Source: Thermodesulfobacteriota bacterium (GTDB lineage Bacteria; Desulfobacterota; Thermodesulfobacteria; Thermodesulfobacteriales; Thermodesulfobacteriaceae). Taken from it: DNA of 64,000 nt. The notes beneath the pieces were generated by a model. It ran no database searches. It saw only the letters and a list, made by a program, of their open reading frames with translations, and had not been told where the DNA came from. Location of the stretch: positions 1-64,000 of the forward strand of contig JAUQPD010000014.1 in the NCBI GenBank assembly GCA_030550555.1, in the 5' to 3' direction. Positions 2,151 through 23,988 of this stretch are shown one piece after another. The position numbers and the translations under genes are program-made. Numbering within the stretch: the stretch's first letter is position 1; each line of letters starts with the position of its first letter.

Positions 2151-2582
2151 CTAATAACTTTCTCTACTTCTAAGCCAATATCTAAACATAACAACAAAAA
2201 TCTGAAGATATACTAAAGTAAATCCAGCAAGAAGAGACACAGGGTGTAATTTCAATTTGGTCATTAGAAAATAGAAGATTATTGCAAGTGCAAGAAGCCG
2301 TAAGTAAACCTTAATTAGAAATAAAGTCCTCTCCTTTTGGTAGGGCCTCTCAACACAGGCCATAACATTTTGATAGACCTTGTATAGAAGTTCTCTACCT
2401 TCTTTACGAAGAGTATAAAAATTGATATATCCAAGAACAGAACCTATAAAAAAGCCCAGTATATGCACCAACTCTCTCACAATTATAGATACACAGATAA
2501 GGCCAAGAACTATACTCGTTAACATAAAAATGTTTAATTCTTTAAGTATACCTTCAACTTCACTCCTTCCCATTTTTATCAA
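2151..2582 (-). CDS. atpI: ATP synthase I-chain family membrane protein
   Basis: A 143-residue protein with about four predicted membrane helices, matching the small poorly conserved ATP synthase I chain family that precedes atpB in many operons. AtpI is thought to help c-ring assembly or ion supply, but it is not a catalytic subunit. The helices lie around residues 15-35, 38-58, 88-108 and 112-132, with a positively charged central loop. It overlaps the end of the AtpZ-like gene by 23 bp and precedes atpB by 12 bp, supporting co-transcription. The first Met or the one at residue 4 (MGRSEVEG) could be the start. The call rests mainly on position, size and topology. Confidence 0.75.
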   Translation of the reverse strand: MIKMGRSEVEGILKELNIFMLTSIVLGLICVSIIVRELVHILGFFIGSVLGYINFYTLRKEGRELLYKVYQNVMACVERPYQKERTLFLIKVYLRLLALAIIFYFLMTKLKLHPVSLLAGFTLVYLQIFVVMFRYWLRSRESY

Positions 2583-2820
2583 GCTCTTTCATCCTTTTTT
2601 TGCTATAGTAAAGTAAATTTTTGATACCACCTATTGCTCCGAGTATTATGAACAATGTTGTTAACCATGGGGAAGTCTTTCCTTTAAGTAACTTTTCCTC
2701 AATTAGCCAGCCCGTTATCGCACCAGCAAGTATTGAACCTATAACCGCAACACCAATCGTTAACCCTTCGCCAAGAACTGTCAGTAAAAACTTAAGGTTA
2801 CTCTCTCTTTTTTCTTTCAA
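2560..2820 (-). CDS. atpZ: AtpZ/AtpQ-type small membrane protein of the ATP synthase operon
   Basis: This 86-residue, two-helix protein matches the AtpZ-like family, which sits at the head of many atp operons and has been linked to assembly or ion transport with AtpI. The glycine-patterned first helix (GEGLTIGVAVIGSILAGAITGW) and the second helix (TTLFIILGAIGGIKNLLYYSKK) with a basic tail are visible. The only in-frame start before the first helix is a TTG at 2820, and it has no obvious ribosome-binding site. A promoter-like element just upstream would place the transcript start almost at this codon, suggesting leaderless translation or an unseen alternative. The gene overlaps atpI by 23 bp. 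Confidence 0.75.
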   Translation of the reverse strand: MKEKRESNLKFLLTVLGEGLTIGVAVIGSILAGAITGWLIEEKLLKGKTSPWLTTLFIILGAIGGIKNLLYYSKKRMKELDKNGKE

Positions 2821-22521: not shown

Positions 22522-23355
22522 CTATTTAATGTAGTTATACCAATTTGCTGGTAGAGAGAAATAGTAGGAATTCAGCTCAGGATGGTAATACTTTCCGAAA
22601 TATTTGGTGATTGCCCTTGTCCAATCCTTTGGCTCTTTTGATGCAAGCACAAAGGCGATTTCCTCTCCATAACAGGGCACAAAGGCTCTTGCCACTTTAA
22701 CATAGGGAAAAACTTCTATTATATTGCGATAGGCATTAGTTAAGACATGAGGAAAATAGGCGGGAAGACTTGCCTGCTGAATAAATACTCCCTTAGGCTT
22801 AAGCACCCTTTGGGCCTCCTCATAGAATGTCTTTGTATAGAGAGATTGGGCTGGGCCAACTGGATCAGTACAATCAATTATAAGTAAATCATAAAACTCT
22901 GAAGGACTTTCTTTGAGACCAAGAAGACCATCTTTTATTATAAAATTTACTCTATTATCTTCATAATTTCCTGCTATCTTAAAGAAATATTTTTGACAGA
23001 GCTCAAACACTAAGAGGTCAATCTCATACTGGTCAACCCGCTTTAGACCCTGTATTTTCTGAAGTTCTCTGAGTACTCCACCATCTCCTCCACCAATTAT
23101 GAGTACCGTTTCAGGTGGATGAGGAAGAAGACTGCAAGGCAAATATGTTATTGTTTCATGATATATAAATTCATCACGTTCAGTAAACTGGACAATGCCG
23201 TCTAATACAAGAAAATACCCCCATGTTGGATTGCGAAAAATCTGAATTTTTTGAAGGGCTCTTTCTTCGTAAACTAATTCAACGAGATAGCTATGTCCAA
23301 AGTCTCTAAAGATCTTCTCTCGCCACCAGAAGCGTCCAGTCAAGTCTCCCCCCAT
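22522..23355 (-). CDS. speE: Spermidine synthase-type aminopropyltransferase
   Basis: The 277-residue enzyme transfers an aminopropyl group from decarboxylated S-adenosylmethionine to putrescine or another amine. Conserved blocks: FGHSYLVELVYEE, VLDGIVQFTERDEFIYHE, the nucleotide loop LIIGGGDGGVLREL, and the catalytic Asp in LIIDCTDPVGPAQSLYT. All key residues appear intact. It overlaps the 3' end of the SpeD-like gene by 16 bp, so the two are co-translated. Its substrate donor normally comes from SpeD, but the linked SpeD copy lacks catalytic residues. The acceptor specificity (putrescine, agmatine, cadaverine) cannot be told from sequence alone. The N-terminus could start a few residues later. 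Confidence 0.92.
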   Translation of the reverse strand: MGGDLTGRFWWREKIFRDFGHSYLVELVYEERALQKIQIFRNPTWGYFLVLDGIVQFTERDEFIYHETITYLPCSLLPHPPETVLIIGGGDGGVLRELQKIQGLKRVDQYEIDLLVFELCQKYFFKIAGNYEDNRVNFIIKDGLLGLKESPSEFYDLLIIDCTDPVGPAQSLYTKTFYEEAQRVLKPKGVFIQQASLPAYFPHVLTNAYRNIIEVFPYVKVARAFVPCYGEEIAFVLASKEPKDWTRAITKYFGKYYHPELNSYYFSLPANWYNYIK

Positions 23356-23780
23356 TCCAGTTTGGAAATTCCTCTGGCTACCTCTGCAACACAGACTTTT
23401 TCTGGCAAGAGGGCTTCCTGAAGTCTTTCAAAGATCTCATAGGCTCTCTCTTTCGTGAACGCGATTATATCGATTGCAGAGTATCCATTTTCAGGCCAAG
23501 TATGGATGTAAATATGGGCTTGGCCTGTGTTTACCTGAGCAGAAACTCCAAAGGGCTGAAACTGATAGCTGAACGATCTGATTTCCTTTGCTTCTTTCTC
23601 TCCATTGATAGCATAGATGAGAGAGGCCTCCACTTTTTTGGCCTCTGCAAGCAATTCGAAGGGAGAGTTCCAAAATTCTACTACTAAGTGATAACTCCAA
23701 ACACATCGTTTGACTGCACCTTGCTGGGCAGGAACAAGTTCAAAGTTCTCTACAAGGCATTTGTTTTGAAGTGCCCTCAT
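23340..23780 (-). CDS. SpeD-like S-adenosylmethionine decarboxylase homologue lacking the pyruvoyl serine
   Basis: The 146-residue protein aligns without gaps to bacterial class 1b AdoMet decarboxylases through FQPFGVS...HIYIHTWPENGYSAIDI. The self-processing pair Glu-Ser (SESH in active enzymes) is Gln87-Ala88 here (GQAH), so the pyruvoyl cofactor cannot form by the known route. The catalytic Cys (FTCG) is Phe108 (IAFT), while His93 in IHT is kept. An extra ~25 N-terminal residues precede SYHLVVEF. GGGGAGGTGAG gives a very strong ribosome-binding site. It is translationally coupled to speE. It may be a regulatory or structural partner rather than an enzyme. Confidence 0.85.
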   Translation of the reverse strand: MRALQNKCLVENFELVPAQQGAVKRCVWSYHLVVEFWNSPFELLAEAKKVEASLIYAINGEKEAKEIRSFSYQFQPFGVSAQVNTGQAHIYIHTWPENGYSAIDIIAFTKERAYEIFERLQEALLPEKVCVAEVARGISKLEWGET

Positions 23781-23793
23781 AGCTCACCTCCCC

Positions 23794-23810
23794 CCAGGCA
23801 AGGTGCCTGG
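23794..23810 (-). promoter_or_regulatory. Hairpin abutting the SpeD-like ribosome-binding site
   Basis: In the leader on the minus strand, CCAGGCA and TGCCTGG form a perfect 7-bp stem with a 3-nt loop. The stem is directly followed by GGGGAGGTGAG and the ATG at 23780. Position next to the ribosome-binding site suggests an effect on translation or mRNA stability; it may also be a tRNA-Pro 3' processing or termination structure. Confidence 0.4.
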
Positions 23811-23837
23811 TTAAATTTGATTTTAGACATAAAAAAA

Positions 23838-23911
23838 TCGGGACGGGCGGATTTGAACCGCCGACCCCCCACACCCCAAGCGGGTGCGCTTCCAGGCTGC
23901 GCTACGTCCCG
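23838..23911 (-). tRNA. tRNA-Pro (anticodon GGG)
   Basis: A 74-nt cloverleaf on the minus strand: acceptor stem CGGGACG/CGTCCCG, D arm GCGCAGCCTGGAAGCGC typical of tRNA-Pro, anticodon stem CCCGC/GTGGG (one G-U) with loop TTGGGGT and anticodon GGG, T arm GGCGG/CCGCC. Discriminator A; no CCA encoded. A run of T follows immediately. The SpeD-like gene is downstream in the same orientation. Confidence 0.95.
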
Positions 23912-23988
23912 ATTTACTTTAACAATTCAATAATAATTTAAATTTTTCCCCTGTCAAGTGATCTTCTATTCCCCCCAAAACCCTACCC

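What the first reader, a model, noticed from the sequence alone, without database searches (positions are those of the whole stretch)
23340..23780. SpeD homologue without its pyruvoyl-forming serine, translationally coupled to an intact SpeE
In active AdoMet decarboxylases the Glu-Ser pair self-cleaves to create the pyruvoyl cofactor. The gapless alignment here gives Gln87-Ala88, and the catalytic Cys is Phe108; only the His and the surrounding fold are kept. The gene has a strong ribosome-binding site and no frame damage, so it is under selection. It overlaps an intact spermidine synthase. It might be a non-catalytic activator, as the prozyme is in trypanosomes, or it may have a new role in polyamine synthesis. 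Either would be new for this lineage.
Basis: partly seen in the sequence, partly recalled or inferred. Interest (0 to 1): 0.72.

Follow-up and report, generated by a model that had tools for sequence, protein, structure and literature searches.

The report
Uncleavable SpeD half beside spermidine synthase
A family of heat-loving bacteria has kept, in place of the normal enzyme that prepares S-adenosylmethionine for spermidine synthesis, a version that cannot make its own cofactor, and the evidence suggests it works by pairing with a separate sister enzyme that still can, much like the two halves of the single human enzyme.

Summary
The 146-aa SpeD homologue at 23340-23780 (-) has Gln87-Ala88 and Phe108 where active enzymes have Glu-Ser and Cys, and it overlaps speE. 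This is not isolated decay. The same degenerate protein ("speDx") occupies the speD-speE slot throughout the order (Caldimicrobium, Thermodesulfobacterium, Thermosulfurimonas and kin) and occurs in seven further families. It forms one clade (100/100), with dN/dS 0.04-0.13. In 48/48 copies the Cys is gone and in 47/48 the Glu-Ser pair is gone, yet His7, Glu11, Phe49, Pro51, Ser55, His68, Trp70 and Glu72 (Thermotoga numbering) are invariant. Of these, Phe49, Ser55 and Glu72 match residues that the non-pyruvoyl "scaffolding" half contributes to the fused eukaryotic enzyme's active site. The genome's only self-cleaving SpeD ("speDcat") lies beside speB and looks like an arginine decarboxylase. Genomes with speDcat alone nearly always lack SpeE (21/22); those with speDcat plus speDx have it (22/23). 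Best reading: speDx is the AdoMet-binding half of a split AdoMet decarboxylase that borrows speDcat's pyruvoyl. The heterodimer and its activity are inferred, not shown. A prozyme-like allosteric role is the main rival.

The parts
23340..23780 (-). speDx: SpeD/AdoMet_dc homologue, 146 aa, without the Glu-Ser cleavage site (Q87-A88) and without the catalytic Cys (F108)
23490..23561 (-). conserved core of speDx (F74-x-P-x-G-V-S80 ... H93-T-W-P-E97): invariant residues equivalent to Tm F49, P51, S55, H68, W70, E72; F, S and E match residues of the scaffolding half of eukaryotic AdoMetDC
   Evidence: residue roles from PMC5201418
22522..23355 (-). speE, polyamine aminopropyltransferase (277 aa), start codon inside the 3' end of speDx (16-base overlap)
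23787..23810 (-). hairpin CCAGGCA-CCT-TGCCTGG followed at once by the ribosome-binding site of speDx; conserved in the order, single copy in the genome
23837..23912 (-). tRNA-Pro(GGG) directly upstream of speDx on the same strand, conserved neighbour
   Evidence: L002 coordinates 1968-2043

Best explanation
speDx is the non-cleaving, AdoMet-binding half of a split AdoMet decarboxylase. Shown: it cannot make a pyruvoyl cofactor of the known kind (no Ser at the site, no Cys); it is under purifying selection; it sits in the speD-speE operon slot; it was never found without speDcat (23/23 genomes). Inferred: it pairs with speDcat through the usual SpeD dimer interface. In that dimer the active site around the pyruvoyl of speDcat is completed by Phe74, Ser80, His93 and Glu97 of speDx, so AdoMet is bound and decarboxylated for SpeE. 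speDcat paired with itself would decarboxylate arginine to agmatine for the neighbouring SpeB. The dead partner would thus switch the substrate of the live one, and the complex would be the two-gene counterpart of the fused eukaryotic enzyme.
For: Two SpeD homologues in the genome: this one, and speDcat with intact E-S and C, followed by speB. No SpeA/SpeC-type enzyme besides one lysA-like protein, no PvlArgDC and no OKR decarboxylase above cut-off, so speDcat is the only candidate arginine decarboxylase. The same two operons occur across the order, and speDx occurs in 11 genomes of seven more families, all with speDcat, beside speB in the eight fetched. Outside the speDx clade the speD-speE slot holds a normal SpeD. 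SpeE goes with speDx or normal SpeD, not with speDcat: a stand-alone SpeE occurs in 1/22 speDcat-only genomes, 19/19 with speDcat plus normal SpeD, and 22/23 with speDcat plus speDx (Fisher 1e-10 by genome, 0.003 by family). 48/48 speDx keep H7 E11 F49 P51 S55 H68 W70 E72; C83 0/48; ES 1/48. speDcat keeps E62 S63 C83 in 115/115 but has changed E11, F49 and W70. In T. brucei AdoMetDC the pyruvoyl half holds Pvl86 and C100, while the other sheet holds Y243, S249 and E266, with the same spacing (6, 17) as F49-S55-E72 (PMC5201418). One clade 100/100; dN/dS 0.04-0.13. Predicted fold matches T. maritima AdoMetDC.
Against: No interaction, processing or activity has been measured. No multimer model could be run. 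G191 has speDx and speDcat but no SpeE found, and G306 has speDcat and a SpeE with no other SpeD found. speDcat itself keeps S55, H68 and mostly E72, so its homodimer could be a complete site of some kind. SpeDA identity rests on the speB neighbour and on missing alternatives; no characterised SpeDA sequence was at hand to place speDcat by tree. Genomes are related, so the association counts are not independent.
Confidence: 0.6

Rival explanations
1. Prozyme-like activator: speDcat is itself an AdoMet decarboxylase, or acts on both AdoMet and arginine, and speDx binds it and raises or tunes its activity allosterically without lending active-site residues.
For: Trypanosomatid prozyme is a dead AdoMetDC paralogue that activates the live one about 1000-fold (PMC5201418). 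speDx always co-occurs with speDcat. G306 has speDcat and SpeE without any other SpeD found.
Against: 21 of 22 speDcat-only genomes lack a stand-alone SpeE. speDcat looks alike whether its partner is normal SpeD or speDx; only eight positions differ consistently and none is a catalytic residue. speDx keeps ligand-side residues, whereas prozyme has lost Y243.
Confidence: 0.2
2. speDx is a binding partner or AdoMet/dcAdoMet sensor for SpeE, with no part in decarboxylation; speDcat makes dcAdoMet and an unrecognised enzyme makes agmatine.
For: Gene overlap with speE across the order. An AdoMet-binding surface would also be kept in a sensor.
Against: In G138 and G260 speDx is not next to speE, and in G191 no SpeE was found. 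Obligate company of speDcat is unexplained. An unknown arginine decarboxylase is needed.
Confidence: 0.12
3. A decaying pseudogene-like copy of SpeD.
For: Loss of the cleavage site and catalytic Cys.
Against: Present in at least ten families with no frame damage, one clade, dN/dS 0.04-0.13, eight invariant residues.
Confidence: 0.02
4. speDx decarboxylates AdoMet by itself with another residue-derived or bound cofactor.
For: It sits in the AdoMetDC operon slot; L055 still has a Glu-Ser pair.
Against: The position of the pyruvoyl serine varies freely (A, V, T, L, M, S) and the Cys position too. No known route to a cofactor.
Confidence: 0.04

Closest known systems
Fused SpeD-degraded SpeDC proteins (Victivallis vadensis WP_116885763, Desulfobacter latus WP_178365596; PMC10407285)
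   Same: A dead SpeD-fold half partners a live one; the V. vadensis fusion restores spermidine in E. coli delta-speD.
   Different: There both halves are one chain, the live half is a true AdoMetDC and the dead one a former ornithine decarboxylase. Here the halves are separate genes in separate operons, the dead half is of AdoMetDC type, and the live half looks like an arginine decarboxylase.
Eukaryotic class 2 AdoMetDC (human, potato, T. brucei)
   Same: One half with pyruvoyl and Cys, one scaffolding half without a cleavage site that supplies Phe/Tyr, Ser and Glu to the same active site, with matching residue spacing.
   Different: Two genes here, single-domain bacterial proteins with clear class 1b sequence.
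Trypanosomatid AdoMetDC prozyme
   Same: Catalytically dead paralogue with a live paralogue in the same genome.
   Different: Prozyme is a full two-half eukaryotic protein acting allosterically and has lost a ligand-binding residue; eLife 2016 (PMC5201418) states prozyme is found only in trypanosomatids.
SpeDA, pyruvoyl arginine decarboxylase derived from SpeD (e.g. Vampirovibrio chlorellavorus SpeD2; PMC10407285)
   Same: speDcat sits beside speB in genomes without SpeA/SpeC, next to a separate SpeD/SpeE pair.
   Different: In V. chlorellavorus the other SpeD is a complete AdoMetDC; here it is speDx.

Membership tests
Active class 1b AdoMet decarboxylase (SpeD, PF02675 / TIGR03330) | AdoMet_dc domain and fold | tested here: met
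   Pfam 76.5 bits full length; AF2 model best matches 1tlu, 1vr7, 1tmi, 2iii
Active class 1b AdoMet decarboxylase (SpeD, PF02675 / TIGR03330) | Glu-Ser self-cleavage site | tested here: not met
   Q87-A88; absent in 47 of 48 relatives
Active class 1b AdoMet decarboxylase (SpeD, PF02675 / TIGR03330) | Catalytic Cys83 | tested here: not met
   F108; absent in 48 of 48
Active class 1b AdoMet decarboxylase (SpeD, PF02675 / TIGR03330) | NCBIfam equivalog score | tested here: not met
   69.8 bits, cut-off 75.65
AdoMetDC prozyme | Dead paralogue coexisting with a self-cleaving paralogue | tested here: met
   speDcat in the same genome; 23/23 genomes
AdoMetDC prozyme | Two-half eukaryotic architecture and loss of the ligand-binding aromatic (Y243/F223) | tested here: not met
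   Single-half protein, F74 invariant in 48/48
AdoMetDC prozyme | Heterodimer with and activation of the live paralogue | not testable with these tools
   Needs co-expression and assay
Scaffolding half of class 2 AdoMetDC | No cleavage site but keeps F223, S229, H243, E247 equivalents | tested here: met
   F74, S80, H93, E97 with spacing 6, 13, 4, invariant; residue roles and, for S229/H243/E247, partly from my own knowledge
Scaffolding half of class 2 AdoMetDC | Fused to the pyruvoyl half in one chain | tested here: not met
   Separate genes on separate contigs
SpeDA arginine decarboxylase (for speDcat) | Intact E-S and C, beside speB, no SpeA/SpeC/PvlArgDC in genome | tested here: met
SpeDA arginine decarboxylase (for speDcat) | Loss of the Pro that marks true AdoMetDC (PMC10407285) | tested here: inconclusive
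   speDcat has an insertion at this place (PEDWGISG) and alignments disagree on the Pro
SpeDA arginine decarboxylase (for speDcat) | Arginine decarboxylation, no AdoMet decarboxylation | not testable with these tools
   Needs enzyme assay

The most novel reading that the evidence does not exclude
A bacterial AdoMet decarboxylase split over two genes, in which a non-cleaving SpeD half turns a pyruvoyl arginine decarboxylase into an AdoMet decarboxylase by completing its active site, so that one pyruvoyl enzyme serves both decarboxylation steps of spermidine synthesis depending on its partner. It would be a living, unfused analogue of the step that led to the eukaryotic enzyme.
Probability: 0.5. 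Interest if true: 0.85.

Novelty: new variant of a known kind. Interest (0 to 1): 0.72.

Why it matters
Dead SpeD halves are so far described only inside fusion proteins and in eukaryotes. A free-standing bacterial one, kept in at least ten families and replacing the normal enzyme, would be the first bacterial pseudoenzyme partner in polyamine synthesis that I could find. It would show substrate choice set by a non-catalytic subunit, and it would make the proposed route from bacterial SpeD to eukaryotic AdoMetDC testable with natural proteins. It also warns annotators that a speD-speE operon need not hold a self-sufficient AdoMetDC.

Tried and rejected
Isolated decay: rejected. Missing second SpeD: rejected, speDcat found. 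Eukaryote-type AdoMetDC elsewhere: PF01536 found nothing in 43 genomes, but its controls also stayed silent, so this is weak. The second PF02784 protein (about 450 aa) as an arginine decarboxylase: set aside, it sits beside an ATP-grasp gene and is missing in complete genomes of this genus. The leader as a known riboswitch: no Rfam family besides tRNA in six loci, and the fold is not exceptional (z -1.1). The Pro marker of PMC10407285 for telling SpeDA from AdoMetDC: ambiguous because of an insertion. A paper on a bacterial prozyme: none found in the held library. Natural speDx-speDcat fusion: none among the long SpeD ORFs examined; the three of about 430 aa and one of 372 aa were SpeD-SpeE fusions.

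Full report
What is there. The window gene at 23340-23780 (-) encodes 146 aa. It starts with ATG behind GGGGGGAGGTGAGCT and overlaps speE (22522-23355 -) by 16 bases. It matches AdoMet_dc over the whole domain but misses the NCBIfam cut-off for active SpeD. Against T. maritima AdoMetDC it carries Q87-A88 for E62-S63 and F108 for C83. According to PMC10407285, S63, H68 and C83 of T. maritima are needed for self-processing and catalysis. Two of the three are missing here. The AF2 model (mean pLDDT 79.6, first 25 residues unordered) is closest to T. maritima and Aquifex AdoMetDC, then to the potato, human and T. brucei enzymes.

The organism. The window is therefore most likely from a Caldimicrobium species.

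The second SpeD. The genome holds one other SpeD homologue, "speDcat", on contig C32, with E-S and C intact and followed directly by speB. Searches of 43 relatives found no PvlArgDC in the order and no OKR decarboxylase above cut-off. In this genome they found only one Orn/DAP/Arg decarboxylase hit, a lysA-like one. By the logic of PMC10407285, a SpeD homologue beside speB in a genome lacking SpeA and SpeC is a candidate arginine decarboxylase. A phage, MaAM05, carries normal speD, a speDcat-like gene, speE and speB in one operon. PMC10407285 describes a cluster of the same content in Vampirovibrio chlorellavorus, where one SpeD was shown to be AdoMetDC and the other an arginine decarboxylase.

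Distribution. In the order, speDx with speE and speDcat with speB recur in nearly every genome. In 297 genomes of the phylum, speDx also turns up in 11 genomes of families f31, f50, f57, f63, f67, f80 and f85, again with speDcat; in eight of the eleven the fetched locus has speE next to speDx. Elsewhere in the phylum the speD-speE slot holds a normal SpeD (L210-L216, L218). By my count of the printed tables roughly a quarter of the genomes with normal SpeD also have speDcat, against 23 of 23 with speDx. speDx is a single clade (100/100) among normal SpeDs.

Which residues stay. In 48 speDx proteins H7, E11, F49, P51, S55, H68, W70 and E72 never vary; E-S is present once (L055, which has Ser for Cys) and Cys never. 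In 115 speDcat proteins E62, S63 and C83 never vary, but E11 is Asp, F49 is mostly Tyr and W70 is Phe or Tyr. The eukaryotic enzyme is a fusion of two bacterial halves (PMC5201418). In T. brucei the pyruvoyl sheet holds Pvl86, and the ligand contacts Y243, S249 and E266 lie in the part that the paper calls the scaffolding sheet (residues 189-356), with C100 near the pyruvoyl. The spacings Y243-S249-E266 (6, 17) equal F49-S55-E72 in T. maritima and F74-S80-E97 here. That bacterial AdoMetDC builds each active site from both chains of the dimer is from my own knowledge of Bale and co-workers (2010), a paper not found in the library. speDx thus keeps what the partner's site needs and has lost what its own site needs.

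SpeE as a tracer. SpeE needs decarboxylated AdoMet. Counting ORFs up to about 420 aa with a strong PF01564 match as stand-alone SpeE (my own rule), it is present in 1 of 22 genomes with speDcat alone, 19 of 19 with speDcat and another SpeD that keeps the cleavage serine (three of these, G112, G144 and G172, have only a divergent speDcat-like gene), and 22 of 23 with speDcat and speDx. So speDcat by itself does not appear to supply decarboxylated AdoMet, whereas speDcat with speDx does. The two aminopropyltransferases of T. thermophilum were shown active in E. coli, and norspermine is prominent in that species (PMC11107197), although its only SpeD homologues are this pair. G023 and G039 lack both SpeD homologues and speB, as expected if the set is lost together, though these assemblies are incomplete.

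Selection. Pairwise dN/dS of speDx for close pairs is 0.04-0.13, so the gene is not decaying.

Reading. Shown: a conserved, selected, non-self-processing SpeD that replaces normal SpeD and always accompanies a self-processing paralogue. Inferred: the two form a heterodimer in which speDx completes an AdoMet site around the pyruvoyl of speDcat. Not shown: binding, processing, activity, and the arginine activity of speDcat. I give the split-enzyme reading 0.6 and an allosteric prozyme-like role 0.2.

Limits. Genomes are not independent samples. Two exceptions exist (G191, G306). No complex could be modelled with the tools at hand. speDcat could not be placed by tree against assayed SpeDA proteins.

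Noticed in passing
window 23787-23810 (-) and the same place in the other speDx loci of the order: A hairpin CCRGGC-loop-GCCTGG merges with the GGGGGGAGGTG ribosome-binding site of speDx; nearly invariant, single copy in the genome, not seen outside the order. Possibly translational control; the fold energy alone is not exceptional.
   Followed up: partly
window 23837-23912 (-): tRNA-Pro(GGG) lies right upstream of speDx on the same strand in 20 of 20 loci scanned, so the operon may be read through from the tRNA gene.
   Followed up: partly
L275 (G045 C36), also G116: Another kind of dead SpeD: a predicted lipoprotein (LASC lipobox) with a SpeD-like domain lacking E-S, the catalytic His and the Cys.
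   Followed up: no
L107 (Microcystis phage MaAM05), 4486-7264: Phage operon with normal speD, a speDcat-like gene, speE and speB, apparently a full arginine-to-spermidine route.
   Followed up: partly
L055 3216-3635 (-) (G030): The only speDx with a Glu-Ser pair, but Ser in place of the Cys; probably chance regain, or a late relic.
   Followed up: partly
L237 (G201), 2399-2800 (+): A SpeD with Gln-Ser instead of Glu-Ser but Cys intact, in a genome that also has speDcat and SpeE.
   Followed up: no
L099, L100, L102, L104: A conserved operon of a PLP decarboxylase (about 450 aa), an ATP-grasp protein and a large protein of about 700 aa, present in most other genera of the order and missing in this one.
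   Followed up: no
L276 (G112), L277 (G172): Divergent speDcat-like proteins with E-S but without the HTxPE motif (ISTNITDG, IHANLATS), next to speE.
   Followed up: no
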